Positions 8,920 to 25,216 of a stretch of DNA of 64,000 nucleotides are shown here, piece after piece. The translations under genes were made by a program, and so were the position numbers. The stretch comes from Burkholderiales bacterium (GTDB taxonomy: Bacteria > Pseudomonadota > Gammaproteobacteria > Burkholderiales > Burkholderiaceae_C): contig JACRNC010000015.1 in assembly GCA_016219375.1 (NCBI GenBank), forward strand, positions 1 to 64,000. The letters run 5' to 3'. Within the stretch, counting starts at the first letter, position 1, and every line of letters begins with the position of its first letter. The notes below the pieces were generated by a model. That model had not been told where the DNA came from and ran no database searches. It saw only the letters and a program-made list of their open reading frames with translations.

Positions 8920-8921
8920 CG

Positions 8922-9491: not shown

Positions 9492-9510
9492 GCACGCGCA
9501 CCAGGAACAG

Positions 9511-9535
9511 CAAGGGCGGCCAGTGGCCGCCCTTG
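9511..9535 (+). terminator. Rho-independent-type terminator after the trb block
   Basis: CAAGGGCGGCC and GGCCGCCCTTG form a perfect 11-bp stem around AGT, 19 bases after the preceding stop codon. The T-tract is weak (TCATT). Confidence 0.65.
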
Positions 9536-9549
9536 TCATTCCGGGCCTG

Positions 9550-9721: not shown

Positions 9722-9731
9722 CTGGCCAGTC

Positions 9732-10444: not shown

Positions 10445-10493
10445 GGTCATCTACCTCCTATCTCAGCTCGACCTCAGATCGACGCCAGGTCGC

Positions 10494-10521
10494 TGTTCAT
10501 AAAACGGTGATTTGTTGAACA
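10494..10521. other. Res-like recombination subsite upstream of the resolvase
   Basis: TGTTCA and TGAACA arms bracket a 28-bp interval, the spacing of resolvase subsite I in Tn3-type res sites. It lies 113 bases before the serine resolvase gene. Only one convincing subsite is visible. Confidence 0.4.
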
Positions 10522-10591
10522 TCTTCACAGCGAGATTGATTGGCTGTCCATGATGTCATCCGCCTGTTAAAATACTCGTCAACTTTTCAAC

Positions 10592-10617
10592 GTCCAGCAA
10601 TCACTCCTTTGCTGGAC
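10592..10617. terminator. Hairpin just upstream of the resolvase gene
   Basis: GTCCAGCAA and TTGCTGGAC form a 9-bp stem followed by ATTTTG. It could be a terminator, an attenuator in the resolvase leader, or part of the recombination site. Confidence 0.5.
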
Positions 10618-10633
10618 ATTTTGCGCTAGGACG

Positions 10634-11233
10634 ATGAAGCGGCCAATGGGGCAACGCATCGGGTACGCCCGAGTCTCGACAGATGACCAAAGCCTTGATT
10701 TGCAGTTCGACGCGCTGCATAGGGCTGGCATAGCCGACGACCGCCTCTACTCCGACACCGCGAGCGGCAAGGACGCCGAGCGCGAGGAGCTGGCTGCGTG
10801 TCTCAAGGCGCTGCGCGAAGGTGACACCCTGGTCGTTTGGCGGCTTGACCGGATGGGCCGTAGTCTGCCCGATCTTGTGCGCATTGTCGGCGAGTTGGAA
10901 AGGAAGGGCGTCGGCTTCGAGAGCCTGACTGAGAAGATTGAGACAGGGAGCGCAGCGGGAAAGCTGGTTTTCCACGTCTTTGCTGCGCTCGCTGAATTTG
11001 AGCGCAATCTGATCCGCGAGCGTACTCAGGCCGGCCTTGTCGCAGCTCGGGCCAGAGGAAGGCACGGTGGCCGCAGGCCGAAGCTTGATGCGCAGCAGAT
11101 AAAAGAGATTCAACAACTGATGTCTGACCCAACGATCCCGGTCAGCGTCATTGCGAAGCGATACAAGGTATCGCGGACCACTATTTACAAAGTAGCTCCC
11201 GTCAGGCGGCCCGAGCCGACGCGGCAGGCCTGA
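10634..11233 (+). CDS. Serine resolvase/invertase
   Basis: A 199-aa recombinase of the resolvase family, which exchanges strands at a res site through a 5'-phosphoserine link. Visible features are IGYARVSTDDQ with the nucleophilic serine near residue 15, VWRLDRMGRSL, FHVFAALAEFERNLIRERT (dimer helix E) and a C-terminal helix-turn-helix (PVSVIAKRYKVSRTTIYKV). It is complete and of usual size. It likely resolves multimers or cointegrates of the plasmid or belonged to a Tn3-like unit; no tnpA is visible. The next gene starts 16 bases later. Confidence 0.9.
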   Translation: MKRPMGQRIGYARVSTDDQSLDLQFDALHRAGIADDRLYSDTASGKDAEREELAACLKALREGDTLVVWRLDRMGRSLPDLVRIVGELERKGVGFESLTEKIETGSAAGKLVFHVFAALAEFERNLIRERTQAGLVAARARGRHGGRRPKLDAQQIKEIQQLMSDPTIPVSVIAKRYKVSRTTIYKVAPVRRPEPTRQA

Positions 11234-11249: not shown

Positions 11250-14200
11250 ATGGACGCCAATACCAAGAAGGGCTACGACCTCATCAACCGACGCCGCAAG
11301 CAGTGGGTCAACGAGGAAGAGGTACGCCACGCCTGGATGAAAGGGCTCGAAGAGGCTTTGCAGATCGACCTGGACGCCGAGCGAGCCAAGCGTGACTCCA
11401 GCTACAACAACGTTGTCATCGAGTTCAAAGGCCCTGGCCTTTTCAAAGGCAGCGAAACGAGCCCGAAGTTTGTCGAAGCGACCGATGGCCGCCTGCTGAA
11501 GTACATCGCTCGCTTGGCATCCGAGCAAGGTCTAGACGAGAAGGACTACATCGGCATTGCCATCGACGGTGAGCATGTGGGTTTCGCCCAAGTGCAGGAT
11601 GGAAAGATCATCCACCAGCCGCTGATGCCGTTCTCGACCATCACCTTCCAGATGGTGGTAGATGCGCTGCGGGCCAATTTCCGGCGAGCGATCACCTCCG
11701 AGAACCTAGCCGAGGACTTCGGGCACCTGTCCAGTACTGGCCGCGAGTTCATGCAGGAGCTGTCCAATGCGCTGGCCGACGCGCTCGGAAAGCAGGGGAA
11801 TCGCAAAATCAAGATGCTTTTCGAGGAGTGGTCAACGCTGTACGGGCAGGCCGCCGACCTGAGCATTCAGCAGCGCAAGAAAATCAATGGATCGTTGGGC
11901 TTCGACTTCGCAGGCCCGGCCGAAGTTGACCTGCCCGCCAAGCTCTTCGTCACCCATACCTTCCATTCGCTGCTAATGAAACTGATTGCGGCCGAGCTCG
12001 TGGCCGCGCACGGCATGGCGTCCAGCACGTCACTGATACACGAGCTGCTGGCTCTGGGGTCGGATGAGGCGCTGATCGACGCCCTGCGGTCGGATGTCGA
12101 GAACGGTGGATTCTTCAACGCGGTGGGTTTGCATGGCTTCGTCGAAGAGGCCATCTTTAGCTGGTATCTGGACGCCACAACCAAGAAGTCTATCCGCACG
12201 TCGACGTGCCTGGCGATTCGCACGCTGCTGGCTCAGCTCTCCGTCTACCGCTTCGACACAATCAAGAAAACCGGCCGATCACGAGATGTCTTGCGTGACT
12301 TCTACCAAGACTTGGTGCCGGAGGAATTGCGCAAAAGTCTTGGAGAGTTCTACACGCCGGATTGGCTGGTCGAGCACTCCGTGGCCAAGCTCGGATACAG
12401 GCGGGACAAGTGGCTTTCTGCTCGTCTCCTTGACCCGACATGCGGTTCGGGATCGTTCCTTTTGGAGGCCATCGAACAGAAGCGCAGCGCAGCTCTCGCG
12501 GCGGGCTGGAATGCCGAGCAGACCGTGGACATGCTGACGACCACGGTCTGGGGTTTTGATCTCAATCCTCTGGCTGTGCAGTCGTCTCGCGTGAACTTCC
12601 TGATCGCGATTGCCGACCTATTGCAGCAGTGCAAGGGCAAGGATGTAGAGATTCCTGTACTACTGGCTGATGCGGTTTACTCACCAGCCCCCCATCCAGA
12701 CGGCGACCAGAAGGTCGTCGAGTACAGCATCGGAAGCCAGCAGGCCAACCTTCAAGTTGTTCTCCCCGCCGACCTGGCCCGTGATCGCGTGTTGCTGGAC
12801 AAGGTGTTCCAGCTTATGGGCGAAGAGGTCGAGAACGATACGGAGTATCCGCCTGTCGCCAAGGCGCTGGTGAAGGCTCGCATCCTGACCAAGGCACAGG
12901 CCGACGAGTGGCATGACCATCTCAAGCTGACCTACGACCAGGTGCTCGCCTTGCACCGACAAAATTGGAATGGCATCTGGTTCAGGATCGTGCGCAACTT
13001 CTTCTGGTCAGCCACCGCTGGGCAATTCGATGCCATCGTCGGTAACCCGCCTTGGGTGCGCTGGTCGAACCTGCCCGAGGCGTACCGAAACCGAGCCAAG
13101 CCGACTTGCGAGAAGTACGCCATCTTCTCGGATACAAAGTTCCACGGCGGCAACGAGTTGGACATCTCCGCCATCATCACCTACACGACAGCCGACAAGT
13201 GGCTGGTCGAAGATGGCAGGTTGGTGTTCGTCATCACGCAGACTGTTTTCCAATCCCCTTCATCGCAGGGCTTTCGACGCTTCCGCATCAACGCGACCGA
13301 CCGTTTGGTGCCGATTTCGGTTGATGACATGAAGGAGCTAAAGCCCTTCCCGGACGCTGCCAACAAGACGGCCGTCGCGATGTTCACGAAGAAGGTGGGG
13401 GGAACGACCCGTTACCCGTTGGACTATCGGGTCTGGCTCGGCAAGCCAAAGACGGACGATGCTGGCAACCCGAAGAAGGGGCGCGGCGGTCAAGTGGCCC
13501 GATTGAAGGCCATCGACCCTCGCTTGCATCGTGCCAAGGTGATTGACCTGGTGGACGTGGTCCAGATGGAGGCCAATCCTGTTTCGCAGACGATGGAAGG
13601 CGCACCCTGGGCCATTATGAAGCCTGGGCATTTCGCCGCCTGCCAGCCGATGTTTGGGGCTTCGACCTGGGTCAATGGCCGAAAGGGCATCACGACTGAC
13701 CTCAATGGGGTCTACTTCGTCGATGTGATCGACTCGAATCCGGTCGCTCAGACGGTCAAGGTGCGCACACGCCCGCACGAAGGCAAGACCAACCTGGGCC
13801 AGCCGCGCGAGTTTTGGGTCGAGGCCGAGAGCTTGTTCCCGCTCGCGAAGGGGGCAGGGGACTTGCACCCCTGCTACTTCCTGCCAGAGAACACCCTGTA
13901 TGCGTTCGTCCCCAACAAGGGCATCGACCGCGCGTCGCTGGACACCGCTGCGGCGCGCTACAGCAGCCACACGAACCCCAAGACCTTCAAGTTCTTCAAG
14001 GCGTACAAGTCTTTCCTGGAGTCCCGATCCACCTTCAAGACGCGCATGAAGGGAGCGCCCTTCTTCGCGATCTACAACGTAGGCGACTACACCTTCGCGC
14101 CCTTCAAGGTCATTTGGGCCGAGATGACAGGTGACTTCTCGGCAGCCGTGGTCGAGTCAGGCTCCGTGCCTGGCTACGGGGCTCGTGTCTATGTGCCTGA

Positions 14201-14504
14201 CCACAAGCTTTACTTTGCCGACTTCGATCAGCCGGAACCAGCCTACTACCTGTGCGGCTTACTGCACTCGGAGATCGTCAAAGAGATGATCGAGGCGCAC
14301 AACGTGGCGACCAACATGGGCGACATCTTCAAACATGTGAGCTTGCCCTCATACGACGCATCGTCCGCTGATCACAAGGCGCTTGCCGATCTGGTGAAAC
14401 AGGCCCACCAAGAGCATGACTCCAACGCACGGGCCACTATCGTCACAAAGGTTCGGGCTGCTGCTGCAAAGATCATCGATGCAGAGATTGCATTGCGTAG
14501 GTGA
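11250..14504 (+). CDS. Type IIG restriction-modification enzyme (Eco57I-like)
   Basis: A 1084-aa fusion of nuclease, N6-adenine methyltransferase and target-recognition regions. Near the N-terminus D49 and E58-F-K60 (KRDSSYNNVVIEFK) fit a PD-(D/E)XK nuclease. LGEFYTPDWLVEHSV is followed by motif I DPTCGSGSF (395-403), and motif IV is GNPPWVRW with NPPW at 599-602. The remaining 450 residues would contain the specificity domain. Single-chain enzymes of this kind methylate their site and cut nearby without partner subunits. The start at 11250 has GAAGGA upstream. The gene is intact and lies between a resolvase and a zinc-hook ATPase, a typical defence context. Confidence 0.85.
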   Translation: MDANTKKGYDLINRRRKQWVNEEEVRHAWMKGLEEALQIDLDAERAKRDSSYNNVVIEFKGPGLFKGSETSPKFVEATDGRLLKYIARLASEQGLDEKDYIGIAIDGEHVGFAQVQDGKIIHQPLMPFSTITFQMVVDALRANFRRAITSENLAEDFGHLSSTGREFMQELSNALADALGKQGNRKIKMLFEEWSTLYGQAADLSIQQRKKINGSLGFDFAGPAEVDLPAKLFVTHTFHSLLMKLIAAELVAAHGMASSTSLIHELLALGSDEALIDALRSDVENGGFFNAVGLHGFVEEAIFSWYLDATTKKSIRTSTCLAIRTLLAQLSVYRFDTIKKTGRSRDVLRDFYQDLVPEELRKSLGEFYTPDWLVEHSVAKLGYRRDKWLSARLLDPTCGSGSFLLEAIEQKRSAALAAGWNAEQTVDMLTTTVWGFDLNPLAVQSSRVNFLIAIADLLQQCKGKDVEIPVLLADAVYSPAPHPDGDQKVVEYSIGSQQANLQVVLPADLARDRVLLDKVFQLMGEEVENDTEYPPVAKALVKARILTKAQADEWHDHLKLTYDQVLALHRQNWNGIWFRIVRNFFWSATAGQFDAIVGNPPWVRWSNLPEAYRNRAKPTCEKYAIFSDTKFHGGNELDISAIITYTTADKWLVEDGRLVFVITQTVFQSPSSQGFRRFRINATDRLVPISVDDMKELKPFPDAANKTAVAMFTKKVGGTTRYPLDYRVWLGKPKTDDAGNPKKGRGGQVARLKAIDPRLHRAKVIDLVDVVQMEANPVSQTMEGAPWAIMKPGHFAACQPMFGASTWVNGRKGITTDLNGVYFVDVIDSNPVAQTVKVRTRPHEGKTNLGQPREFWVEAESLFPLAKGAGDLHPCYFLPENTLYAFVPNKGIDRASLDTAAARYSSHTNPKTFKFFKAYKSFLESRSTFKTRMKGAPFFAIYNVGDYTFAPFKVIWAEMTGDFSAAVVESGSVPGYGARVYVPDHKLYFADFDQPEPAYYLCGLLHSEIVKEMIEAHNVATNMGDIFKHVSLPSYDASSADHKALADLVKQAHQEHDSNARATIVTKVRAAAAKIIDAEIALRR

Positions 14505-14542
14505 TTGTTGAACGGACGTTCCAGTAGTAGGTAGGGGGCAAC

Positions 14543-14773
14543 ATGAAATCGAAGGACCAGGAAAAAAACGAGCCGTTTTTCATCACCGAGGACGTGGCGG
14601 CCGAGATGGCCGCTGCCGGCTACGAGTTCAAGCCACCAGGCCATGCCAGAACGAAGAGCGTGCGCGACCTCTACGGATGGCAGTTCGGCGAAATGCTGGA
14701 GGAGGCCATACGCAGGCACCTGGGAAAAGCTGATGCAGCTAGCGAGTGCGAACCGAGAGGCGAAGGCGTATGA
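14543..14773 (+). CDS. Small unknown protein coupled to the ATPase
   Basis: A 76-aa charged protein (MKSKDQEKNEPFFITEDVAAEMAAAG at the start, cut here) with no recognised family. AGGGGGC precedes the ATG. Its TGA overlaps the ATG of the ATPase gene (ATGA at 14770-14773), so translation is coupled. The gap to the restriction-modification gene is 38 bases, so the three genes probably share a transcript. It might be a regulator or sensor subunit of the module. Confidence 0.6.
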   Translation: MKSKDQEKNEPFFITEDVAAEMAAAGYEFKPPGHARTKSVRDLYGWQFGEMLEEAIRRHLGKADAASECEPRGEGV

Positions 14774-17376
14774 CGACGGAAGCAGAGGCGCTCGCCAACA
14801 TCCTTGCGTGGTCTGCTGACAGTCCTGGCTGGCAGCGCGACGCACTGCGCCGACTTGCAACACAAGCGGCCCTGGAGCCGGCCGAGATCGACGAGTTGGC
14901 TTCCATCTGCAAGGGCGACAATCCGGCGGTCCCGCTGGAAGCGGGGCATCTTCGCGGCTCGAACCGCGATCAGGGGGAAGTCTATCTGCGGCAGGTGCAT
15001 GGAGTCCGGCATGTCAATGCTCTGGCTCCCGACCAACGGCTGACGCTCCACCGTGTCGGTTTGACGATCATCTATGGCGACAACGGATCGGGAAAATCCG
15101 GCTACGCGCGGATTCTCAAGAAGGTATGTCGCGCCCGTATGCCTGGCCGAGCCGAGGAAATCGCTCCCGACATCTATGACGCTGCACCAGGCACGCCGAG
15201 CGCCACGATTGAATACGCGATCAGCGGCCAGAACCGCACTTGCGCTTGGCAGCTTGGACAGGCTGCCGACACTGCGCTTTCAGGCATCAGCGTGTTTGAT
15301 TCCCGCACCGCGAACGTCCACGTTGATGATACGAATGACGTGGCTTACACGCCGTTTCCGCTCAAGCTGTTGGGTGCGCTGGCGCAGCTCTGCAAGTCGG
15401 TCAAGGACAAGCTGGCAGCCGAGATTGCGCAGATAAAGGCGCAAACGCCCGAAGCGATCAGGACGCCGGCATGCAGCCGGGACACAGCGGTCGGCAAGCT
15501 CATGGCCAGAGTCACCGCCAACACTGCGCCGGCGGCGGTCGAAGCGTTGGCCACGCTCACGCAAGCAGAGCAAGACCGATTGGCGCAGCTCACGGCGGAC
15601 CTGGCTGGTGATCCGGCTCGCGCGGCGCGCCAGCTTGTTGCGTTGAAGACTAAGGTTGACGGGCACGTTGCACGCCTGGATCGGCTATTTGCTTCAATCA
15701 GCGACGATACCGCCAATAACCTGCGCCGCCTTGCTGTTGATAGCGATGCCGCACGCCGGGCGGCAGAAGCTGCTTCCAGTGCGCTTTTCCGCGACGAACC
15801 GTTGCCGCAGATTGGGTCGGAGGTTTGGCAGGCGCTATGGGCCAGTGCCCGAGCATTTTCTGACGCGGAAGCCTATCCCGAACGGCGATTCCCCGTCACA
15901 GACCCCGGCAGCGTATGCGTGCTTTGCCAGCAGGAATTGACACCCGTCGCCGCTGATCGGCTCAATCGCTTCGAGGCTTTTGTGCGCGACGACAGCCAGC
16001 AACGTGCCGACGCTGCGCGCGTCGCATACGACAGGGCGCTGGCAACGTTCAAGGGTGAGGCTGTTTCGTTGGCCGAGTTGGCGAACATTGTGGCAACCGT
16101 CCGCGACGAACTGCGCCAGGATGCCTTGGCGATGGAGATCAGGGGCGCGACCCTTCGAGCCCTGTGGCGTCATCGCCAGATCACGCGACGCCACGCAAGT
16201 CCAAGCGCCGCTATTGACGTGCCCGTTACGGAATATTCGCGCCAGGCGCTGGTCGATCAAGCAGCGGGCATTGAGACTCGGGCGAACGCCCTTGCCGCGG
16301 AGGCTGGCTCTCCAGCTCGCGCCGCCTTGCTTACCGAAAAGGCCGAGCTTGTGGATCGGCAATGGCTTGGTGGCATCAAAGCCGATGTTCTCGCCGAAAT
16401 CGAACGCCAGAAGAAAATCGCACTGCTTGAGACGGCCCAGCGGGACACTGCTACCAACCGCGTCACCACAAAGAGCACCGAGATCGCTCAGGCTTTGGTG
16501 ACGGACGCGCTACGCGCGCAATTTGCTCGCGAGGTGGCGAGCTTCGAGATTGCTGGCCTCGCTGTGGAGCTTCGACAGCAAAACAGCGTTCAGGGCATCC
16601 CTCGCTTCAAGGTCGCACTTACACGGAAGCCCACGGCTGCGGTGGGGCAGGTTTTGAGCGAGGGCGAGCATCGCTGCGTCGCCCTGGCCGCGTTCATGGC
16701 CGAACTCACCACCACCGAAAACAAGTCCGGCATCGTCTTTGACGATCCCGTTTCCTCGCTCGACCACATGCACCGGGAGGCAGTAGCTAAACGCCTGGTT
16801 GCTGAGGCCGCTCATCGCCAGGTCATTGTCTTCACTCATGACCTGGCGTTCCTGTTCGAGTTGAATCGCGCGGCTGACGATGCGCAGCCAAAGCCGCCGG
16901 TTGCGATTAGCTCCATCAGCCGGGGTGCTGACAAGGCAGGCTTCTGCCGCAGCGAGCCGCCATTCAAAGCGCGTCGGGTCAGTGACATCACCACAAGTCT
17001 GAGCAATCAGCTTGCCGGTGAACGCTACCATTTCGAGCAAGGCAATCAAGACGAGTGGCGAAAGTCCGTCAAATCCATCGCCGCGACGTTGCGCGATACG
17101 TGGGAGATCGCGGTTGAAGAAGCTGTCGGGCACGTCATCCGGCGGCTGTCCAACGAAGTGAAGACGCCTGGGTTGGTCAAGCTTACCGCGATCACGGTTC
17201 CCGACTGCGAGGCCATGCGTGACGGCTTTGGTCGCTGTTCCGAGCTGCTGCACAGCGCCGCCGCTGCGTTGAACCGCCCTCTGCCGAGGCCAGAAGCACT
17301 GACGGCCGAGATCGATGCCTTGGCGGCCTGGGCGGACAGCCTTCGGCAGCGTCAGAGTGCTGCGAGGTTGCCCTGA
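14770..17376 (+). CDS. SMC-like zinc-hook AAA ATPase (RloC-like defence protein)
   Basis: An 868-aa protein with split ABC-ATPase domains around long helical arms. The P-loop is GDNGSGKS (103-110). A zinc-hook CVLC sits mid-arm (Cys383 and Cys386), the ABC signature is LSEGE (629-633), and Walker B is IVFDDPVSSLDH (Asp658-Asp659). This is the plan of RloC-type proteins, which sense DNA damage or phage and cleave tRNA. The region after Walker B contains TLRDTWE (an R-x3-E) and a later LLHS histidine, reminiscent of an anticodon-nuclease triad, but I cannot confirm that. Start chosen at 14770 because of the ATGA overlap. Other SMC-like defence ATPases are alternatives. Confidence 0.75.
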   Translation: MTTEAEALANILAWSADSPGWQRDALRRLATQAALEPAEIDELASICKGDNPAVPLEAGHLRGSNRDQGEVYLRQVHGVRHVNALAPDQRLTLHRVGLTIIYGDNGSGKSGYARILKKVCRARMPGRAEEIAPDIYDAAPGTPSATIEYAISGQNRTCAWQLGQAADTALSGISVFDSRTANVHVDDTNDVAYTPFPLKLLGALAQLCKSVKDKLAAEIAQIKAQTPEAIRTPACSRDTAVGKLMARVTANTAPAAVEALATLTQAEQDRLAQLTADLAGDPARAARQLVALKTKVDGHVARLDRLFASISDDTANNLRRLAVDSDAARRAAEAASSALFRDEPLPQIGSEVWQALWASARAFSDAEAYPERRFPVTDPGSVCVLCQQELTPVAADRLNRFEAFVRDDSQQRADAARVAYDRALATFKGEAVSLAELANIVATVRDELRQDALAMEIRGATLRALWRHRQITRRHASPSAAIDVPVTEYSRQALVDQAAGIETRANALAAEAGSPARAALLTEKAELVDRQWLGGIKADVLAEIERQKKIALLETAQRDTATNRVTTKSTEIAQALVTDALRAQFAREVASFEIAGLAVELRQQNSVQGIPRFKVALTRKPTAAVGQVLSEGEHRCVALAAFMAELTTTENKSGIVFDDPVSSLDHMHREAVAKRLVAEAAHRQVIVFTHDLAFLFELNRAADDAQPKPPVAISSISRGADKAGFCRSEPPFKARRVSDITTSLSNQLAGERYHFEQGNQDEWRKSVKSIAATLRDTWEIAVEEAVGHVIRRLSNEVKTPGLVKLTAITVPDCEAMRDGFGRCSELLHSAAAALNRPLPRPEALTAEIDALAAWADSLRQRQSAARLP

Positions 17377-17959
17377 ATCCTTGGCGTCATCCAAGTGCTG
17401 TGGAGCTGAGCGTGGTATTGTTCATGGCACTTACATGGCGACCGTTAGTAAGGTATTGATATGTATAGTGGTTTTTTGGTTATTTATAATCGAGTGGGAA
17501 TGATCCAGACCCGTCTCAACCGTTGCGAGAAGGTCTGAATAGGTCGCCCCCGACCGCAGGGATCCACATGAAGTCTTGAGACGCTACGGCGCCTGGAGCA
17601 GCACGGCCTTGGCCCTGGCAATGCCGGCCAAGCAAACTCGGCGCCGGAGTTTTTGGAGGACATGGAGAAGGTCGTGCCCTGGGCAGGCCCAATGCCTTTC
17701 GCGTTGTCGTACCTACCCGCCACCAAGCGAGGTTTCCCGCAGTTTCTTCCGGGGCAACCATGCTGTCACCGCTCCATGCAGCAGTGGTTCGCGCTGGGCG
17801 ATCCGGCGATGGGACAAGCGCTTTAGGACATATCGGTGGTCTGCACGCGCTGTTTGCACTGGCCCAACTACGGCTGGTGAGGCGCCCGCGTGAACGCGGA
17901 TCTCAAGAGGCTTTACCTACCTGGCACCCACCTTGCATTGCACCGCGTGTCTGGAGGGC
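17377..17959. other. Intergenic region with AT-rich patch and IS relic
   Basis: These 583 bases hold no intact gene. An AT-rich patch (about 17440-17500, including GGTTATTTATAATCG) is followed by the transposase relic. The composition differs sharply from both neighbours and marks the join between the defence block and the nitrile hydratase cluster. Confidence 0.6.
17621..17900 (+). pseudogene. Decayed IS5-family transposase fragment
   Basis: Pieces of an IS5-type transposase can be read: MPAKQTRRRSF, then FLEDMEKVVPWA after a one-base shift in the T-run at 17650-17654, then MQQWFALGDPAMGQAL, a stop at 17824, and DIS. The expected order in IS5 transposases is FL.EMERVVPW ... LQQWYALSD.AMEEALYD. 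The middle part is scrambled and the catalytic DDE region is absent. It is a relic, so it cannot move, but it shows past insertion beside the catabolic genes. Confidence 0.7.
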
Positions 17960-18925
17960 ATGGTGGTTGTCAGTGATGTCGATGTCCGTCTTCTAAGGGT
18001 GTTTCGAGCAGTGGTCGAAGCCGGTGGCTTTGCAAACGCTCAGTCGGCACTCAATGTGGGCTCGTCCACGATCAGCGCGCAGATGTCTCAACTGGAGACG
18101 CGGCTGGGCTACGTGCTGTGTCATCGGGGCCGCGGTGGGTTCCGGCTGACAGACAAGGGCGAGGCGCTGTACCGGCTGGTCATTGACTTCTTCCAGTCCG
18201 TGCACAACTTTGAGATGCAGGCGGACGCCTTGCGTGGCGGCATGACCGGACAGCTGCGCATCGGCTTCATCGACAACATCGTCACGGATCCGCATTCCCC
18301 GTTCCGCGCGGCGGTCGAGAATTTCCGTCAGCAGCCGCTCAATCGCGCGCGTTTGCTGCTTGACGTCCTGCCTCCACAAGAGCTGGAGGAGGCGCTGTTG
18401 GACCACCGCGTCGACGTGGCAGTAGGGATCTTTTACAGCCGGCTGCCCCGCCTGGACTATGAGCCGCTCTACCTGCAGCGCGAGATCTTGGTGTGCCACC
18501 GAGATCACCCATTGGCCTTCGCGGACGAGACCGAACTGGCGGCGGCGCTGCCGTCAACGCACAAGGTGCTGCGTTCCTTCCTGGGCACGCATGAGTTCCC
18601 GTTCGCCAGCCCGGGTGGAGACTGCATGGTCTCCAGCATCAGTCATATCGAGGCGACCGCCTTGATGGTGCTGACCGGCGACTGCATTGGCTTTTTGCCG
18701 CAGCACTACGCTCGGCACTGGCTGAACACCGGCGAGATGGTGGTGTTGCTACCCGACCAGCTCTACCGCGACTCGCAGTTCTCTATCGCCACACGTGCCG
18801 ATCAGCTACGGCCTCCACCCGCCTTGCATGCATTCCTGGGGAGCTTGCGCGCCGCCAAGGTGCAGCAAGGCGCCGAAGCGGTGCGTTCGCAGGTCGAGCG
18901 ACAGTTCACGTCGATCGTGTCGTGA
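17960..18925 (+). CDS. LysR-family regulator of the nitrile hydratase cluster
   Basis: A 321-aa LysR-type regulator. The winged HTH is at the N-terminus (VDVRLLRVFRAVVEAGGFANAQSAL..SSTISAQMSQLE), followed by a periplasmic-binding-like effector domain (GQLRIGFIDNI...). The ATG at 17960 follows GGAGGG. It is on the same strand as the ABC/nitrile hydratase operon and ends 108 bases before it, so it is the natural candidate for its activator, responding to the nitrile or its amide product. Many LysR genes are divergent from their targets; the co-directional layout here may reflect the IS-scarred left border. Confidence 0.85.
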   Translation: MVVVSDVDVRLLRVFRAVVEAGGFANAQSALNVGSSTISAQMSQLETRLGYVLCHRGRGGFRLTDKGEALYRLVIDFFQSVHNFEMQADALRGGMTGQLRIGFIDNIVTDPHSPFRAAVENFRQQPLNRARLLLDVLPPQELEEALLDHRVDVAVGIFYSRLPRLDYEPLYLQREILVCHRDHPLAFADETELAAALPSTHKVLRSFLGTHEFPFASPGGDCMVSSISHIEATALMVLTGDCIGFLPQHYARHWLNTGEMVVLLPDQLYRDSQFSIATRADQLRPPPALHAFLGSLRAAKVQQGAEAVRSQVERQFTSIVS

Positions 18926-19033
18926 GTTACTTCGATACGCCGCTATTTATCCGGTCAGGCGGCCTGCCTACAGTTTCCTTTCATGACGGAACCCGATGCA
19001 GCTCGCACCGGTCGTCTCACGGAAGGACATGGA

Positions 19034-20023
19034 ATGAACCGTATCGTGTGGGTGATTGCCGGTGCCGCTGCGCTGGCTCTGGGAGGTGCGGCCTCTGCCG
19101 CTGATAAGCCGCTGACCAAGGTTAAGGCTGGGCACTTGGTGGCCATTGACATGGCGCCGCTGTTCGTGGCCAAGGAAAGCGGATGCTTCGCCCAGCAGGG
19201 GCTGGACGTCGAAACCGTTTTCTTCGCTAACCCCGGGGACAACAACGCTGCCTTGGCCGGGGGCGCCATTGACTTCAGCACCAACCCCTTCACGCTGCCG
19301 TTCTTTGCGGCCAATAGCGGCGTGCCGATCCGTGTGATCGCGGCAGCGGGTGGGTGGGGCGTGATGGAGGTGGTCGCCCAAGGCAAGCATGGCTTGAAGT
19401 CTATGGATGACCTCAAGGGCTATGTGAAGGCCGGGAAGCCCAAGCTGAAAATCGCCACGCTGCAGGGGGACACCCTGGAGCTCATCCTCAAGCGCGAGTT
19501 CAGTCGCCTGGGGTTGTCGGACAAAGACGTCGAGTTGGTCTACTTCAATGACCTGCTGGCCATGGTCGAGTCCTTCCGCTCCGGTCAGGTGGACCTGTTG
19601 AGCCATATCAAGCCCTACACCACCGACATGGTGGTCAGCAAAGGTGCCACGGTGCTGACTACCAGCGCCAAGACCTACTCGACGACCACGCCCAACACGG
19701 TGGTGAGCGTGCTGGACAAGACCCTTAAGGGGCGTCCCCAGGTTGTGACCAGCTACCTCAAGGGCCTGCAGTGCGCTGCGGCCATTATCAACAAACAGCC
19801 GGAGAAGGCGGTGGAGTACCTGGCCAAGGGTAACTACTTCCGCGTGGCTCCCAAGGTTCTGCTGGCCTCCATGAAGGCTGCTCCGGCTCCCGTGAGCTTC
19901 ACGCCTGATGTGCTGGCCGTGCAGACCGTCGTCGACGAGCTGACCCAGTTGGGCTATGTGAAAGGGTCGATCAGCACCAAGGACATTTTTCGTCTGGACA
20001 TCATCAAGGGTCTGGAGAAGTGA
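19034..20023 (+). CDS. ABC transporter substrate-binding protein (NMT1/nitrate-sulfonate type)
   Basis: A 329-aa periplasmic binding protein. The signal peptide ends near AASA-ADKPLTKV, and the mature part begins VKAGHLVAIDMAPLFVAKESGCFAQQGLDVE, typical of the NMT1/THI5 and SsuA/TauA group that carries taurine, nitrate, pyrimidine precursors and nitriles. GGAAGG precedes the ATG at 19034. It heads the operon with permease and ATPase, stop to start overlapping. The ligand cannot be read from sequence; the neighbouring nitrile hydratase suggests a small polar nitrile. Confidence 0.85.
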   Translation: MNRIVWVIAGAAALALGGAASAADKPLTKVKAGHLVAIDMAPLFVAKESGCFAQQGLDVETVFFANPGDNNAALAGGAIDFSTNPFTLPFFAANSGVPIRVIAAAGGWGVMEVVAQGKHGLKSMDDLKGYVKAGKPKLKIATLQGDTLELILKREFSRLGLSDKDVELVYFNDLLAMVESFRSGQVDLLSHIKPYTTDMVVSKGATVLTTSAKTYSTTTPNTVVSVLDKTLKGRPQVVTSYLKGLQCAAAIINKQPEKAVEYLAKGNYFRVAPKVLLASMKAAPAPVSFTPDVLAVQTVVDELTQLGYVKGSISTKDIFRLDIIKGLEK

Positions 20024-20816
20024 TGAGGGGCGGCCGCGACGCCATGCGCTCTGCCGCCCCCTGGGTGGTCGGCGTGCTTTCCGTCAGTCTCGTCCTGGGA
20101 CTGTGGGAGATGGCAGGGCTGCGGGAAGGGGCGCTGGCCAGCGTGCTGCCGCCACCTTCGCAGTTCCTTTCGAGCATTGCCCAAAGCGACTTTCGCATCG
20201 GGCTGGGGTCGCAGGCCGCCACGGTGACTGAATCCCTCACGGCGACCTTCTTCCGGGTGTTCGTGGGCATGGCGGTCGCGTTTGTCGCAGCCATCCTAAC
20301 GGGGGCGCTGCTGAGCCTGTCGCGCTTGGCCACCTGGGCGCTGTCGCCCCTGCTTCAGCTGCTGGCCCCCATCGCGCCCATCGCGTGGATTCCGACGGCC
20401 ATCGTCGTCTTCGGTATCAACGATGTGACAGCCATTTTCATCGTGTTCATGGGGGTCTACTTCATTCTGACCCTGGCTACGCTGGCCGAGATCAGGCGCA
20501 TTCCGCCCGAGTTCGGCACCGTGGCCGGCAACTTGGGAGCGACTCCCCTACAGCGCTGGCTGTGGGTGACGCTGCCGGCCATTCTGCCCGGGGTGTTCGT
20601 GCTGTTGCGCACAACTTCATCGCCGCCTGGATGGCGGTGCTGGTGGCTGAGATGGTGGGGCTGCGTGACGGGCTTGGCGCCATCATCATGATGGGCCGCA
20701 ACCTGTTCAACAACGAGTTGGTGATGTTCGGCATGGTCGTCATCGGGCTGACGGGCTTCATCGTCGACCGACTGCTGCAGTTCATCGGGCAGCGGATCCT
20801 GTGGTGGAGAGTATGA
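20023..20816 (+). pseudogene. ABC transporter permease with a frameshift
   Basis: A BPD_transp_1-type inner-membrane permease (SsuC/TauC-like). The frame from 20023 encodes several membrane helices and the EAA region (AGNLGATPLQRWLWVTLPAILPGVFVLLR), then shifts. The remaining part (HNFIAAWMAVLVAEMVGLRDGLG ... ILWWRV, cut here) continues in another frame to 20816. One missing C at about 20610 (CGCAC for CGCCAC) explains it. Upstream the reading stops at 20691. Everything else is well conserved, and the next gene still overlaps the original stop, so this is either a sequencing error or a very recent mutation that would disable uptake. Confidence 0.85.
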
Positions 20817-21571
20817 GCATGCTGATGAAGACCGAGGCGGCGGAGGCCTTCCGCGTCGAGAAGCTGACCGTGGACTACGGTGGCAACCATGGCCCCCTGC
20901 AGGACTTCAGCCTGTCCATCCGACAGGGCGAGGTTACCTGCCTGCTGGGCCGCTCGGGTTGTGGCAAGACCACCTTGCTCAAGTCGCTGGGGGGCTTTGT
21001 GGTCGGACGCGACACGGGGGGCGTGCTCTTCGAGGGGCGCTACCTCAATGGCCCGACGCCCGACATCGTGATGATCTTCCAGGAAAACAACCTTTTCCCC
21101 TGGCTGACCGTGCGCGGCAATGTCGAGTTCGGCCTGAAGTTCAAGCCGCGCAGTCAGCGCCGGGGCGACGTGGTTGACGAGATGCTGCGCATCGTGGGCT
21201 TGAGCGATGCCGCCAGCCGGTATCCGCACGAACTGTCAGGCGGCATGCGCCAGCGCACCGCCATTGCCCGGGCGCTCGTGTCGGATCCCCACGTGCTTCT
21301 GCTGGACGAGCCTTTCAGCGCGCTGGACATCAGCCTGCGCCGGCGCATGCACGCCTTAGTGCTGGAGCTATGGGAGAAGACCTCCATGACCATGGTCATG
21401 GTGACGCACAGTATCGAAGAGGCGCTTCAGGTGGGGCACCGCGTGGTCGTGCTGGGCAACCGCCCGGCGAAAGTGCTCATCGACGCGAACACACGCGCGC
21501 CTGCCATGAAAGATCGCTACTCCCCGGAGTTTCTGGCCCTGCAGCAGCGCATCGAGTCGGTCATTTACTGA
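20813..21571 (+). CDS. ABC transporter ATP-binding protein
   Basis: A 252-aa ATPase of the nitrate/taurine importer group. Visible are Walker A GRSGCGKTT, Q-loop FQENNLFPWLTV, signature LSGGMRQRTAIARAL, Walker B VLLLDEPFSALD and the switch MVTHSIEEAL. The start at 20813 overlaps the permease stop (ATGA). It energises uptake by the two preceding gene products. The nitrile hydratase beta gene starts 17 bases after its stop, so transport and catabolism are co-transcribed. Confidence 0.92.
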   Translation: MSMLMKTEAAEAFRVEKLTVDYGGNHGPLQDFSLSIRQGEVTCLLGRSGCGKTTLLKSLGGFVVGRDTGGVLFEGRYLNGPTPDIVMIFQENNLFPWLTVRGNVEFGLKFKPRSQRRGDVVDEMLRIVGLSDAASRYPHELSGGMRQRTAIARALVSDPHVLLLDEPFSALDISLRRRMHALVLELWEKTSMTMVMVTHSIEEALQVGHRVVVLGNRPAKVLIDANTRAPAMKDRYSPEFLALQQRIESVIY

Positions 21572-21588
21572 ACAAGGAAGGGCAGCCT

Positions 21589-22275
21589 GTGAATGGCATC
21601 CACGACATGGGCGGACTGCACGGCTTCGGGCCGGTGGTCCGCGAGGAGAACGAGCCGGTGTTCCATTCGTACTGGGAAAGCCGGGTCTTTTGCATCACCC
21701 AGGTACTCGATACCAAGGAGATCTGGAACCTGGACGAGCACCGCCACGAGATCGAACTGATGAATCCCGCGGACTACTTGACGGCCGGCTACTACGGTCG
21801 CTGGCTGTTCGCGATGGAGCGGCTGCTGGCGCGCAAGGACATCCTGCGTGCCGAGGAAGTGCAGCGCCGAGTCGACGAGCTATCGCAAGGCGTGCAGCCG
21901 CTCAGTCCTGCGGCCTCATGTGCGCGCGGCTGGCCACTGGCGCCGGAGCGCAGGGTGCGCTGGGGCGCTTGGCGACATGACCAGGAGGTGACGCCCCGCT
22001 TCGAGGTGGGTGAGCGTGTGCGCGTGCGCAACATCCATCCGGAAGGACATACGCGTGTCACGGCTTATGCGCGGGGCAAGGTCGGCGTGGTGGACCGCGT
22101 CAACGCCGAGGCGTGGGTGTTTCCGGACACCCGGGCGCATTACCGGGGCGAGAACACCCAGGCGGTCTATGGCGTGCGCATCGTCGCCTCCGAGTTGTGG
22201 GGGCCCCAGGCCGAGCCCAATGCCTCGGTCTACATCGACCTGAGTGAAGACCATCTTGAAGCCGTCACTGAATGA
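21589..22275 (+). CDS. nthB: Nitrile hydratase beta subunit
   Basis: A 228-aa protein of normal length for the beta subunit. It begins with GTG (21589, GGAAGGG upstream) as [16 protein letters not shown], the family hallmark, followed by [14 protein letters not shown]. The C-terminal SH3-like barrel appears as [31 protein letters not shown]. The beta subunit supplies arginines that hold the modified cysteines of the alpha subunit. Beta precedes alpha, the order usual in cobalt-type enzymes. Stop and alpha start overlap (ATGA). Confidence 0.93.
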
Positions 22276-22874
22276 CCGACATGGACACTACATCGAACCA
22301 AGGCAAGCCCTGGCAGGCGGTGCGGACCGAAGCTGTGGAAAGCCTGCTAGTGGAGTTGGGCGTCATCGACTCCGCCCGTGTGGACGAGTTCGTCCGGCAC
22401 TATGAAGAAAAGGTGGGACCCAAGGGTGGCGCGCGCGTCGTGGCGCGGGCTTGGGTGGATGCCCACTTCAAGCAGCGCCTGCTGGCCGACGGGCTGGCCG
22501 CCTGCGCCGAGCTAGGGCTCGGGGGGCCTGAAACCGAGAAGCTGCACGTGGTCGAGAACACACCCACGGTGCACAACGCTGTGGTGTGCACCTTGTGCTC
22601 GTGCTACCCCTGGCCAATCCTGGGTGTGCCACCTGCCTGGTACAAGTCCAGTGCCTACCGTTCCCGCATGGTCCGCGAGCCCCGTCGCCTGCTGGCCGAG
22701 ATGGGGCTGAGCCTGGACCCCAGCGTGGAGATCCGAGTCTGGGACAGCGTCTCGGAGATCCGCTATCTGGTGCTGCCCGAACGTCCGGCCGGCACCGAAG
22801 GCCTCAGCGAGGAGCAACTGGCCGACCTCGTCACCCGGGACGCCATGATCGGCGTGGCGAAGGTGACCGCATGA
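22272..22874 (+). CDS. nthA: Nitrile hydratase alpha subunit (cobalt type)
   Basis: A 200-aa metal-binding subunit. Nitrile hydratase adds water to a nitrile to give the amide. The claw motif V-C-T-L-C-S-C is at residues 105-111 (Cys106, Cys109, Cys111 with Ser110), followed by [15 protein letters not shown]. Threonine in the second claw position marks cobalt enzymes; iron enzymes have CSLCSC. All ligands are present. The following gene supplies a likely cobalt-insertion activator. The natural substrate is unknown; thiocyanate hydrolase, a relative with three subunits, is less likely because beta is full length. Confidence 0.93.
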
Positions 22875-23335
22875 GCACAGCGTTTTTCGACACCGCACCC
22901 TCGACCTTTCCCACGCCCTGGGCTGCCCGGGCCTTTGCCCTCGTCAACGCGGCGGCGGAAGCCGGCGTGTTCGATCTGCGTGATTTCCAGCAGGCCCTGA
23001 TCAGGACCATTCAGGGGTACGAGGCTTCCGGGGGCTGCATCGGCGACGAGGCTAGCTACTACGACTGCTGGATCCGGTCCTTGACGGCGCTTGTCCAGGA
23101 GCGTTGCATCGACCCGGTGCAACTGTCCGCCATGGAGGCGTTGATTCGGGAGCGCTACGCGAATCGACACGGCCATGCGCACGGCGGTCATCCGCAGCAC
23201 CCCCACGATCACCAGGACCACGATCACCGGCATCCGGCCCACCCTGCTCACCCCGGTCACCCTCACCAAGGACACACCGTTCTGGAGGGCGGGTCACGAG
23301 TGCCTAGGCCCATCTATGTGGAGCGCGCGCAATGA
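22871..23335 (+). CDS. Nitrile hydratase activator with His-rich tail
   Basis: A 154-aa accessory protein. Residues 1-98 resemble the beta-like activator (p14K type) of cobalt nitrile hydratases ([28 protein letters not shown] ... [13 protein letters not shown]). Such proteins escort the alpha subunit and help load cobalt and oxidise its cysteines. Residues 100-135 add a tail with 15 histidines mixed with Gly, Pro and Asp, like the metal-storage tails of nickel and cobalt chaperones. The start overlaps the alpha stop (ATGA). The tail is not a usual part of p14K proteins. Confidence 0.82.
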
Positions 23336-24027
23336 GGCAAGTTGCCGCTGAACCCTATGCCTTCCCGATCGAAAGTTCGTTCGACCCCGGGTCGGCGGCC
23401 CTCGTCATCATCGACATGCAGCGAGACTTCTGCGACTCGGCCGGCTACATGGGCCGCCGAGGGGCTGACGTCAGTGCTGCCCAGGCTCTGGTTCCCCGCA
23501 TTGAGAGGCTGCGGGACGCGGCGCGCAAGGCTGGCATGCAGGTCATCTACACCCGCGAGGGGCACCACCCCGGGCTAGGCGATCTGCCGCCCAGCAAGCG
23601 CGCCAAGACACGCCTGGCTGGTGCCGAGATCGGCTCGGCTGGAGCGCTGGGTCGACTGCTGATCCGGGGCGAGGACGGCTGGGACATCGTGCCCGATCTG
23701 GCTCCCGGGCCGGACGAGGTCGTCATCGACAAGGTGGGAACAGGCGCCTTCTATGCCACTGACCTCGAGCATCGGCTGAGGGTGCGGCACATCGAGCAGA
23801 TTGTGCTGGTCGGTGTGACCACGGGCGTGTGTGTGTCGAGCACGGCGCGCGAGGCTGCCGACCGGGGCTTTCACGTGCTGGTACTGGCTGACTGCTGTGC
23901 CGAGCCCGACCCGTACATGCACGAGATCGCCATGGATCTGCTGCAGGTCGAGGGCGGCTACATCGCCACCATTGGCGAGAGCGATTCGCTGCTTGAGGTG
24001 CTATCCATGTCGGATTCCGCCGGCTAA
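23332..24027 (+). CDS. Isochorismatase-like cysteine amidohydrolase
   Basis: A 231-aa hydrolase of the isochorismatase/nicotinamidase superfamily, which includes biuret hydrolase, N-carbamoyl hydrolases and guanylurea hydrolase. The catalytic triad is visible as Asp28 (VIIDMQRDF), Lys134 (VVIDKVGTGAF) and Cys167 (GVTTGVCVSSTAREA, with the usual cis-peptide). Its start overlaps the activator stop. In this operon it stands where an amidase normally follows nitrile hydratase, so it probably hydrolyses the amide or ureido product and releases ammonia. Confidence 0.88.
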   Translation: MRQVAAEPYAFPIESSFDPGSAALVIIDMQRDFCDSAGYMGRRGADVSAAQALVPRIERLRDAARKAGMQVIYTREGHHPGLGDLPPSKRAKTRLAGAEIGSAGALGRLLIRGEDGWDIVPDLAPGPDEVVIDKVGTGAFYATDLEHRLRVRHIEQIVLVGVTTGVCVSSTAREAADRGFHVLVLADCCAEPDPYMHEIAMDLLQVEGGYIATIGESDSLLEVLSMSDSAG

Positions 24028-24067
24028 GGTGACTGCACGGGACGTTGTCATTCCCCGGAGCCTTGTG

Positions 24068-25216
24068 ATGCTCTATGCCGCCGATGTCCCTCACGGAAGC
24101 GAAGGCCTTGCCGAACCCGGCTCGGCTCGTGCAGAGGCCCGAACTCCAGCGGCTTGGGGGCTGGCGGCCCGCGCCCGGGCCGTCCATGTGCTGCTCGCCC
24201 CCTGGCTGGCCCAGCCGGGCGTGTCCCTGGCCTGCGGTCGCTGGTCCGATGGTGCCATCTCCGAACTTATGCTCGGTGGCAAGGCTTGTCTGCTGCCCGA
24301 GCGCTACGACGGCCCCTTCGCGGGCATCCGGGAGCTGCGCCTAGCCGACGCGCAGCACCATCTCCACGTGGATCTGGGTCGGGTTGAGCGTGTCGCCTTT
24401 GCAATCGCACCGAGTGTCTGCCTGGGCTTCAAGCCGTCCCTCGAAGTGCGGCTGCTTACCCAGGTGCAGCCGCAGGAATGGACCGTGTCTCTGATGCTTC
24501 AGCCCCCTTACGACGGCGATCGCTTGGACCTGGAGGCCGTAACGCGCTTCCTGGAGCTGGCCTGCCGCCAGATGCAGGCGCAGCCGGACCTCACGCAGTG
24601 GGCGCTGGATCCGGGGCTCACGTCCAGCAAGCATGGGCAAGCCCTGCTAGGCATACTAGATGCGGCGACCACGCAGGCCGGCTTGAGCATGCCGGCTACC
24701 GAGCTCATGATGCCCGCAGCCCGTCCTGACGACCCCTTGTGTCTGCCTCTCCTGAGACAGGCTCTTACGCTGGCGGATGCGTCCCTGGTTATCTTCCGGG
24801 AGCGCTCGTTGGTTGAGTTCAAGACGGATCATCTCGATGGCGTGCACCGCCTTGAGGAGAACGGCCACGTGTCCTGGCAGCTGGGTGCTTTCCAGCACCA
24901 CCATTGCCACCTGGCCCTTGAGGCCGTGACTCGCGTGGTCTTTTCAGCCGAGCCGGTGCCTTGCCAGGGTGGCGGGCTCAACTACACGGTTTGGTTCCAG
25001 ACCGCCTGGCCAGCTGGCAACCCGCATCGTCCGCATGGGTACTTCTCGGTCACACTCAACCGGCCCTACCTGGGCAACGTGTCCGGCGCAGCGCCTCGAC
25101 TGGAGGTCATCAAGCCAGTGCTGGATCTGTATCGGCGCTACGCCCAAGAGCCATGGGTGGAAATCGACGACGCTTTCCAGCGCGTGCTGGAGAACGGGCC
25201 GCCAGCCCGGCCATGA
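24068..25216 (+). CDS. Unrecognised protein with internal duplication
   Basis: A 382-aa protein (ATG 24068 with GGAG upstream; a GTG at 24029 is an alternative). I do not recognise it. Two halves share a pattern: HHLHVDLGRVERVAFAIAP...GFKPSLEVRLL near residues 97-131 and HHCHLALEAVTRVVFSAEPVPCQGG near 277-301, each H-H-x-H followed by a strand. No signal peptide or membrane segment is seen. The spaced histidines, and a weak likeness to the two-repeat HemS/ChuX fold, could mean metal or cofactor binding, but that is speculation. As the last gene of the cluster it may serve enzyme maturation or product handling. Confidence 0.7.
   Translation: MLYAADVPHGSEGLAEPGSARAEARTPAAWGLAARARAVHVLLAPWLAQPGVSLACGRWSDGAISELMLGGKACLLPERYDGPFAGIRELRLADAQHHLHVDLGRVERVAFAIAPSVCLGFKPSLEVRLLTQVQPQEWTVSLMLQPPYDGDRLDLEAVTRFLELACRQMQAQPDLTQWALDPGLTSSKHGQALLGILDAATTQAGLSMPATELMMPAARPDDPLCLPLLRQALTLADASLVIFRERSLVEFKTDHLDGVHRLEENGHVSWQLGAFQHHHCHLALEAVTRVVFSAEPVPCQGGGLNYTVWFQTAWPAGNPHRPHGYFSVTLNRPYLGNVSGAAPRLEVIKPVLDLYRRYAQEPWVEIDDAFQRVLENGPPARP

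What the first reader, a model, noticed from the sequence alone, without database searches (positions are those of the whole stretch)
19034..25216. Nitrile hydratase cluster with an isochorismatase-like hydrolase in place of an amidase
The order ABC importer, nitrile hydratase beta/alpha, activator, isochorismatase-like hydrolase and unknown protein is a single coupled operon. A signature amidase normally follows nitrile hydratase; here a Cys-triad hydrolase of the family containing biuret and guanylurea hydrolases does. A natural hypothesis is a nitrogen-rich substrate such as cyanoguanidine (hydration to guanylurea, then hydrolysis) or another cyano-ureide, taken up by the importer. I have not seen this exact cluster described.
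Basis: partly seen in the sequence, partly recalled or inferred. Interest (0 to 1): 0.85.

Follow-up and report, generated by a model that had tools for sequence, protein, structure and literature searches.

The report
Likely bacterial operon for cyanoguanidine breakdown
A set of neighbouring bacterial genes looks like an import-and-breakdown route for cyanoguanidine (dicyandiamide, a fertiliser additive), pairing a nitrile-hydrating enzyme with a probable guanylurea-splitting enzyme; the same set recurs in other bacteria and on plasmids, but no activity has been measured.

Summary
LysR regulator, ABC importer, cobalt-type nitrile hydratase (beta, alpha, activator) and a Cys hydrolase form one tightly spaced run; 10 relatives keep the importer-to-hydrolase order, an 11th with LysR inserted. 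Two corrections: the permease frame is broken near 20,611, and the last "unknown" gene is in only 2 of 12 clusters.

The hydrolase belongs with biuret, triuret and guanylurea hydrolases but has Thr and Glu at biuret hydrolase's Lys145 and Gln215; the characterised guanylurea hydrolase of Pseudomonas mendocina MET has Tyr and Glu. Three relatives carry carboxyguanidine-deiminase genes and an allophanate-hydrolase-type amidase in the same run; one also has a guanidine-II riboswitch and SugE exporter beside it; three hydrolases of the same clade without nitrile hydratase lie in guanidine-I riboswitch loci. UAAP2 is in 10 of 10 cluster genomes searched, against 32 of 250 in the order.

Best reading: cyanoguanidine is imported, hydrated to guanylurea, hydrolysed to carboxyguanidine, then mineralised. 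Gene content is shown; every reaction is inferred. My literature searches listed no paper joining nitrile hydratase with cyanoguanidine breakdown, in a library that lacks most subscription journals. In the window the cluster lies between plasmid-type genes and higher-G+C sequence.

The parts
17933..18925 (+). LysR-type regulator, same strand, just upstream of the operon; start codon uncertain
   Evidence: PF00126 + PF03466; 81% and 77% identical LysR in the same place in L006 and L008
19034..20023 (+). ABC importer, periplasmic substrate-binding protein (NMT1/SsuA-like)
   Evidence: PF09084; TIGR01728 below its cut-off; 59-89% identical to SBPs of the other clusters, 28% or less to the other SBP matches in the loci held
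20023..20816 (+). ABC importer permease, frame broken near 20,611 (one base short of relatives)
   Evidence: PF00528 and TIGR01183 matches, both below cut-off; alignment; open in the 8 relatives checked
20801..21571 (+). ABC importer ATPase
   Evidence: PF00005
21589..22275 (+). nitrile hydratase beta subunit
   Evidence: TIGR03888 above cut-off
22272..22874 (+). nitrile hydratase alpha subunit, cobalt-type CTLCSC
   Evidence: TIGR01323 above cut-off; clade of 12 cluster enzymes, support 100/99
22871..23335 (+). nitrile hydratase activator, His-rich tail (probable metal chaperone)
   Evidence: TIGR03889 above cut-off
23332..24027 (+). isochorismatase-like Cys hydrolase, proposed guanylurea hydrolase; triad D28, K134, C167; T137, E207
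   Evidence: PF00857; active-site table; tree
24029..25216 (+). unknown protein, tentatively two ChuX/HutX-like repeats; probably not part of the pathway
   Evidence: no Pfam or NCBIfam match; low-confidence model, Foldseek likeness to 3na2/3fm2; found in 2 of 12 clusters

Best explanation
The cluster is a mobile catabolic operon for cyanoguanidine (dicyandiamide). The ABC importer takes up the compound; the cobalt nitrile hydratase hydrates its N-cyano group to guanylurea; the Cys hydrolase releases ammonia from guanylurea and leaves carboxyguanidine; carboxyguanidine deiminase (UAAP1/2, CgdAB) makes allophanate, and allophanate hydrolase makes ammonia and CO2. In three relatives genes for all of this lie in one same-strand run; in this genome the last steps are encoded on another contig (C16) next to a guanidine-I riboswitch. 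Shown: gene content, order, homology, conserved active-site residues, co-occurrence. Inferred: every reaction, every substrate and the direction of transport.
For: Order kept in 10 relatives, plus L028 with LysR inserted. Nitrile hydratase alpha of all 12 clusters is one clade, 100/99, against 31 other rows. Hydrolase: at BiuH Lys145 Thr in 11 of 12 and Tyr in 1; at Gln215 Glu in 12 of 12; the characterised guanylurea hydrolase of pMET-2 has Tyr and Glu; the 3 solved BiuH/TrtA sequences and 2 similar L042 rows have Lys and Gln. Alanine at D36, K142 or K145 abolished BiuH activity and at F41 or Q215 cut it by over 90% (PMC7948467 passages); GuuH-MET is active on guanylurea and nearly inactive on biuret (PMC9800807 passages). 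NCBIfam BiuH model NF050097 (cut-off 370): BiuH-type L042 427, GuuH-MET 271, window 257. CgdAB (TIGR03425/TIGR03424 above cut-off) and an amidase above the cut-off of the allophanate-hydrolase subfamily model NF006043 lie in the run in L006 and L008, with identical copies in L007. L008 has a guanidine-II riboswitch (36.8 bits, gathering 32) and a SugE exporter above cut-off next to LysR. Three hydrolases of the same clade without nitrile hydratase nearby (L014-L016) lie in guanidine-I riboswitch loci, two of three with CgdAB, carboxylase and AtzF. UAAP2 above cut-off in 10 of 10 cluster genomes searched, against 32 of 250 in the order (the 250 include the window's own genome); allophanate hydrolase TIGR02713 in 9 of 10, no base rate run. 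Ni/Co transporter genes follow the hydrolase in at least 5 of 12. A cobalt nitrile hydratase hydrates the N-cyano group of acetamiprid (PMC12646544 passages).
Against: No assay. Thr137 and Gly165 differ from GuuH-MET (Tyr, Asp); the window hydrolase is 53% identical to GuuH-MET but also 47-49% to BiuH and 46% to TrtA. Glu at position 215 is common and not proof of guanidine linkage: of 19 other Glu rows without nitrile hydratase, 6 lie in loci with a guanidine riboswitch and 13 do not, the characterised GuuH-MET locus among the 13. CgdAB is in the run in only 3 of 12 clusters; no guanidine riboswitch was found in the window, L006, L009-L013, L028, L039 or L040. The amidases of L006 and L008 miss the allophanate-hydrolase equivalog TIGR02713 (477 and 471 against 511). 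The SBP is 26% identical to that beside GuuH-MET. The window's permease is frame-broken. The 12 cluster hydrolases are not one exclusive clade: L028 stands apart and L014-L016 nest inside (AU p 7e-13). The NHase tree carries a long-branch warning for its join to 4ob1.
Confidence: 0.68

Rival explanations
1. The substrate is another N-cyano compound (for example N-cyanoguanidine drugs or N-cyanoamidine insecticides); the hydratase makes an N-carbamoyl-amidine or substituted guanylurea that the hydrolase then cleaves.
For: Cobalt nitrile hydratases hydrate N-cyano insecticides (PMC12646544 passages). The Thr137/Gly165 pair leaves smaller side chains than GuuH-MET's Tyr/Asp. Two plasmid records come from one wastewater isolate.
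Against: CgdAB and an allophanate-hydrolase-type amidase in the run of three relatives point to an unsubstituted guanidine core.
Confidence: 0.17
2. The hydratase acts on cyanourea and the hydrolase is a biuret hydrolase, so that the pathway runs through biuret and allophanate.
For: Nearest solved structures are biuret hydrolases, 6xjm and 6azo; the hydrolase scores on the BiuH model.
Against: Below the BiuH cut-off (257 against 370), Lys145 and Gln215 both changed in all 12, and CgdAB would not be needed.
Confidence: 0.06
3. Ordinary nitrile hydratase for small carbon nitriles that happens to share an operon with a guanylurea hydrolase; no joint pathway.
For: No direct biochemical link (no call could test it); nitrile hydratases are often broad in substrate range (general knowledge).
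Against: Order kept in 10 relatives and nearly so in L028; one NHase clade with fixed beta residues rare elsewhere (Gln38, Asp41, His51 in 12 of 12; at most 1 of 24 others at each); in L028 a hydrolase of a different lineage with the same Glu accompanies the same hydratase.
Confidence: 0.09

Closest known systems
Guanylurea hydrolase of Pseudomonas mendocina MET (BB_00025, plasmid pMET-2)
   Same: Isochorismatase-like Cys hydrolase with D/K/C triad, Glu in place of BiuH Gln215, no Lys at BiuH 145; its gene lies with LysR, SBP, permease and ATPase
   Different: 53% identical; Tyr and Asp where the window has Thr and Gly; no nitrile hydratase beside it; its SBP is 26% identical to the window's
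Biuret hydrolase BiuH and triuret hydrolase TrtA
   Same: Family, catalytic triad and Phe41
   Different: Lys145 and Gln215 absent; below the BiuH equivalog cut-off
Cobalt nitrile hydratases (alpha, beta, activator), such as Pseudomonas putida 3qxe
   Same: Both subunits, CTLCSC motif, activator
   Different: Own clade; followed by a Cys hydrolase; with its own ABC importer; fixed beta Gln38, Asp41, His51
Guanidine assimilation operons (guanidine carboxylase, CgdAB, AtzF, ABC importer; PMC12186494 passages)
   Same: CgdAB and allophanate-hydrolase-type genes shared in three relatives; the window's genome has such a set on C16
   Different: Entry is by nitrile hydratase plus hydrolase; no carboxylase was found in the L006-L008 loci, as expected if the hydrolase delivers carboxyguanidine directly (inference)

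Membership tests
Cobalt nitrile hydratase | alpha and beta subunits above curated cut-offs | tested here: met
   TIGR01323 287.3 (249.85), TIGR03888 220 (152.2)
Cobalt nitrile hydratase | CTLCSC metal motif in alpha and beta Arg52 | tested here: met
   sequence of P0003; beta Arg52 in 12 of 12 cluster and 24 of 24 other enzymes. That Arg52 is essential is recalled.
Cobalt nitrile hydratase | metal content and hydration activity | not testable with these tools
   needs purified enzyme
Isochorismatase-like Cys hydrolase | PF00857 domain and Asp-Lys-Cys triad | tested here: met
   158.5 bits (cut-off 27); D28, K134, C167
Biuret hydrolase (BiuH) | Lys145 and Gln215; NF050097 above cut-off | tested here: not met
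   Thr137 and Glu207; 257 against 370 bits; a BiuH-type control L042 scored 427
Guanylurea hydrolase (GuuH) | Glu at BiuH 215 and a residue other than Lys at BiuH 145, as in GuuH-MET | tested here: met
   My own provisional rule from one characterised sequence; 19 rows without nitrile hydratase (GuuH-MET among them) also meet it; the P. mendocina GU enzyme was not available.
Guanylurea hydrolase (GuuH) | falls in the clade of GuuH-MET | tested here: not met
   own clade (100/100), separate from that of GuuH-MET
Guanylurea hydrolase (GuuH) | activity on guanylurea | not testable with these tools
   needs assay
Guanidine assimilation operon | CgdAB, AtzF and guanidine riboswitch at the locus | tested here: inconclusive
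   not in the window; CgdAB and amidase in L006-L008, riboswitch in L008, such a set on contig C16 of the same genome

The most novel reading that the evidence does not exclude
A dedicated, horizontally spread pathway that mineralises cyanoguanidine without the ATP-using carboxylase: a nitrile hydratase clade whose physiological substrate carries a nitrogen-bound rather than carbon-bound cyano group, coupled to a second, separate lineage of guanylurea hydrolase (Thr/Glu type) that feeds carboxyguanidine straight to CgdAB.
Probability: 0.6. Interest if true: 0.8.

Novelty: new variant of a known kind. Interest (0 to 1): 0.72.

Why it matters
Guanylurea, a common contaminant, forms from metformin and from the fertiliser additive cyanoguanidine (PMC11410670 passage), but the listings of my searches showed no paper on genes for the cyanoguanidine step (open-licence papers only). 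If right, this operon gives that step, a gene marker for cyanoguanidine breakdown in soil and wastewater, a physiological role for one clade of nitrile hydratases, and another source of guanidine-type metabolites for bacteria that sense guanidine by riboswitch. It is directly testable with two purified enzymes and one growth experiment.

Tried and rejected
Biuret route (cyanourea to biuret): not first choice, because both BiuH residues are changed and the BiuH model is missed. Unknown gene P0006 as a pathway enzyme: apart from the window's own copy it was found in L008, strongly in one and weakly in another of 250 genomes of the family, and in one of 369 genomes of the class, there in two pieces; no nitrile hydratase was detected near the strong family match or the class match; its model is poor (mean pLDDT 50.8), so the Foldseek likeness to 3na2, 3fm2 and ChuX is a lead only. 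No plasmid match for it. SBP likeness to the GuuH-MET SBP: 26%, not informative. Promoter and terminator scan: 0 found where shuffles gave 1.1 and 4.6. The base rate of UAAP2 (32 of 250) comes from the window's order and includes the window's genome, whereas cluster genomes include other classes, so the Fisher values (4.5e-9; 1.1e-6 without L006-L008) are only a guide; the hosts of the plasmid clusters were not searched. The genome scan uses short peptide patterns of the window protein and finds close relatives only. Beta residue numbers printed are one too low; one search has the right ones. The NHase tree uses the 30 best-ranked loci (one of them the window's own), so weaker matches are not sampled. 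Gene calling in relatives was crude, longest frames only.
Full report
What is there. The cluster is real and at the stated place. From 17,933 to 25,216 on the + strand lie a LysR regulator, an SsuA/NMT1-type substrate-binding protein, an ABC permease, an ABC ATPase, nitrile hydratase beta, alpha and activator, an isochorismatase-like hydrolase, and a protein without family. From the SBP on, five of seven junctions overlap and the other two gaps are 17 and 1 bases. The alpha subunit carries CTLCSC, read as cobalt-type in PMC12646544 (passages).

Conservation. A pattern-based scan of genome contigs (84,980 species, close relatives only) with the hydrolase gave 33 loci. In 9 of 33 the nitrile hydratase lies with it: L006 and L007 (a Burkholderiales MAG and Aquabacterium parvum, with identical hydrolase and alpha subunit), L008 (Burkholderiales MAG), L009-L011 (Paraburkholderia and Burkholderia), L012 (Enterobacterales MAG), L013 (Marinobacter HL-58) and L028 (Tistlia). 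Among plasmids 539 records match the hydrolase; I opened six (H1-H5 and H7), and three of these carry the cluster: one Stutzerimonas and two of one Klebsiella wastewater isolate with the same protein accessions; I count the latter once. Ten relatives (L006-L013, L039, L040) keep SBP, permease, ATPase, beta, alpha, activator, hydrolase in order on one strand; L006-L008 have two genes inserted between SBP and permease; L028 has LysR between activator and hydrolase. In a sample of 399 genomes of the order, 86 have a nitrile hydratase match at E 1e-30 or better, but apart from the window's own the best is 64% identical, against 74-90% for cluster members, so the cluster looks rare. The 12 cluster alpha subunits form one clade (100/99) against 31 other rows, with a long-branch warning on its join to 4ob1. 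The SBPs of the clusters are 59-89% identical to the window's, and no other SBP found in the loci exceeds 28%.

The hydrolase. By sequence it is nearest in the PDB to biuret hydrolase 6xjm. In BiuH, alanine at D36, K142 or K145 abolished activity and at F41 or Q215 cut it by more than 90% (PMC7948467 passages; structure in PMC5806882, passages). The window keeps D28, F33, K134 and C167 but has Thr137 at the K145 place and Glu207 at the Q215 place. Across 12 cluster hydrolases the first is Thr in 11 and Tyr in 1, the second Glu in 12; the guanylurea hydrolase of P. mendocina MET has Tyr and Glu; three solved BiuH/TrtA sequences and two similar rows of L042 have Lys and Gln. That enzyme was read from plasmid pMET-2, whose hydrolase is identical to the KHPS1 copy used in the alignment; PMC9800807 (passages) reports 11 umol/min/mg with guanylurea and 0.4 nmol/min/mg with biuret. 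Loss of a positive and gain of a negative charge in the pocket suits guanylurea's cationic end better than biuret; this is my inference. Both GuuH-MET and the window miss the BiuH equivalog cut-off (271 and 257 against 370), which a BiuH-type control passes (427).

How specific is that signature? Among all rows, 19 without nitrile hydratase also have Glu with a residue other than Lys (GuuH-MET among them). Six of the 19 lie in loci with a guanidine riboswitch (L014-L016, L027, L034, L044), four of these with CgdAB; 13 do not, including the characterised GuuH-MET locus. Of 14 locus rows without Glu none has either, though three of those loci (L035-L037) were not scanned for RNA families. The signature is therefore suggestive, not diagnostic.

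In the tree, 11 of 12 cluster hydrolases form one supported clade (100/100) together with three from Paraburkholderia (L014-L016) that have no nitrile hydratase within the stretch held; the twelfth, from Tistlia, is of another lineage. The AU test rejects the 12 as an exclusive clade (p 7e-13). So one hydratase clade goes with hydrolases of two lineages, both with the Glu. The clade is distinct from that of GuuH-MET; I therefore say it works like a guanylurea hydrolase, not that it is a member of that clade. PMC12625717 (passages) also separates biuH, trtA and guuH by phylogeny and notes nitrile hydratase and biuH genes in nitrifier genomes; the passages do not put the two in one cluster.

Links to guanidine metabolism. 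The two genes inserted in L006-L008 are UAAP1 and UAAP2 (TIGR03425 and TIGR03424 above cut-off in L006 and L008; identical in L007), proteins annotated for urea metabolism that Schneider et al. 2020 identified as carboxyguanidine deiminases (title seen in the reference list of PMC12186494; paper not read; that its proteins are UAAP1/2 is recalled). Downstream of the hydrolase these three have an amidase above the cut-off of the allophanate-hydrolase subfamily model NF006043 but below the equivalog TIGR02713 (L006 and L008; it lacks the C-terminal part). L008 has a guanidine-II riboswitch at 2714-2758 (36.8 bits, gathering 32) directly before a SugE exporter gene (NF008512, 148 bits, cut-off 126), which is followed by the cluster's LysR; PMC9800807 calls SugE-family proteins Gdx exporters. 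L014, L015 and L016 each hold one or two guanidine-I riboswitches, and L015 and L016 also CgdAB, carboxylase and AtzF. At gathering score no guanidine riboswitch was found in the window, L006, L009-L013, L028, L039 or L040; L007 was not scanned.

The same genome. Contig C16 carries a second hydrolase of the Tyr/Glu type, a guanidine-I riboswitch, an SBP, allophanate hydrolase (801 bits, cut-off 511), a urea-carboxylase-family protein (1879, cut-off 1304), UAAP2 (338, cut-off 285) and beside it a UAAP1-position paralogue (125 bits on the UAAP2 model; the UAAP1 model was not run on it). UAAP2 is above cut-off in 10 of 10 cluster genomes searched against 32 of 250 in an order sample that includes the window's genome, and in 1 of 14 control genomes; allophanate hydrolase in 9 of 10, the tenth (L008's genome) having the shorter amidase. 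So the downstream steps are encoded even where they are not in the operon.

Mechanism. Import of cyanoguanidine, hydration to guanylurea, hydrolysis to carboxyguanidine and ammonia, deimination to allophanate, hydrolysis to ammonia and CO2. No carboxylase was found in the L006-L008 loci, which have CgdAB, as expected if the hydrolase supplies carboxyguanidine directly; published work describes the guanylurea hydrolase products as ammonia and guanidine (PMC11410670 and PMC12186494 passages). Cobalt supply fits: CbtA (L006, L007), HupE/UreJ (L013, L039) or NicO (L012) genes follow in at least 5 of 12. That a cobalt nitrile hydratase can act on an N-cyano group is known from acetamiprid. The cluster clade has fixed beta residues rare elsewhere (Gln38, Asp41, His51 in 12 of 12); position 41 is a tunnel-entrance residue in PMC9297474 and position 37 a tunnel residue in PMC7193024 (passages). 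This suggests a distinct conserved substrate, not which one.

Mobility. The first 11 kb of the window encode plasmid replication, transfer and resolvase proteins; G+C in the cluster is 61-66% against 70-73% to its right; relatives sit on plasmids with transposase genes nearby. The module appears to travel.

Literature. Searches for cyanoguanidine with guanylurea and hydratase, nitrile hydratase with isochorismatase, dicyandiamide with nitrile hydratase, dicyandiamide with degradation and guanylurea, nitrile hydratase or carboxyguanidine since 2023 (30 of 211 listed), cyanoguanidine with nitrile hydratase, and dicyandiamide with hydratase listed no paper whose title or abstract start describes this cluster. 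The library lacks most subscription journals, and I recall, without having read them here, older papers on enzymatic dicyandiamide degradation by soil bacteria; they may bear on priority.

Noticed in passing
window 216-11233: Integrated plasmid or conjugative element: AAA_25 and RepC replication proteins, NikA, TraI-like relaxase, T4SS (PF07996) and TrbL transfer proteins, traJ-II RNA (3001-3104), PtaRNA1 (9196-9267, minus), resolvase; the window begins at base 1 of contig C14.
   Followed up: partly
window 11250-17376: Two large genes between the transfer genes and the cluster: an Eco57I-like restriction-modification protein (1084 aa) and an AAA_13 protein (876 aa), possible phage-defence cargo.
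   Followed up: no
L044 9403-13516 (contig C16 of the same genome): A fatty-acid-desaturase-family gene and an EamA transporter lie between a guanidine-I riboswitch with SBP and the Tyr/Glu-type hydrolase, an unexplained set in a guanidine locus.
   Followed up: no
L009-L012 and L040, upstream of the SBP: A second conserved module: ABC ATPase, permease, SBP and a carbon-nitrogen hydrolase (559 aa in L040) before the nitrile hydratase operon in five loci.
   Followed up: partly
window 24029-25216: Rare protein without Pfam or NCBIfam match; a low-confidence model suggests two ChuX/HutX-like repeats.
   Followed up: partly
L041 8540-12248 and pMET-2 (L092): The characterised guanylurea hydrolase gene lies in an SBP-deaminase-hydrolase-permease-ATPase run with LysR, similar in logic to the window's cluster but with a distant SBP.
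   Followed up: partly
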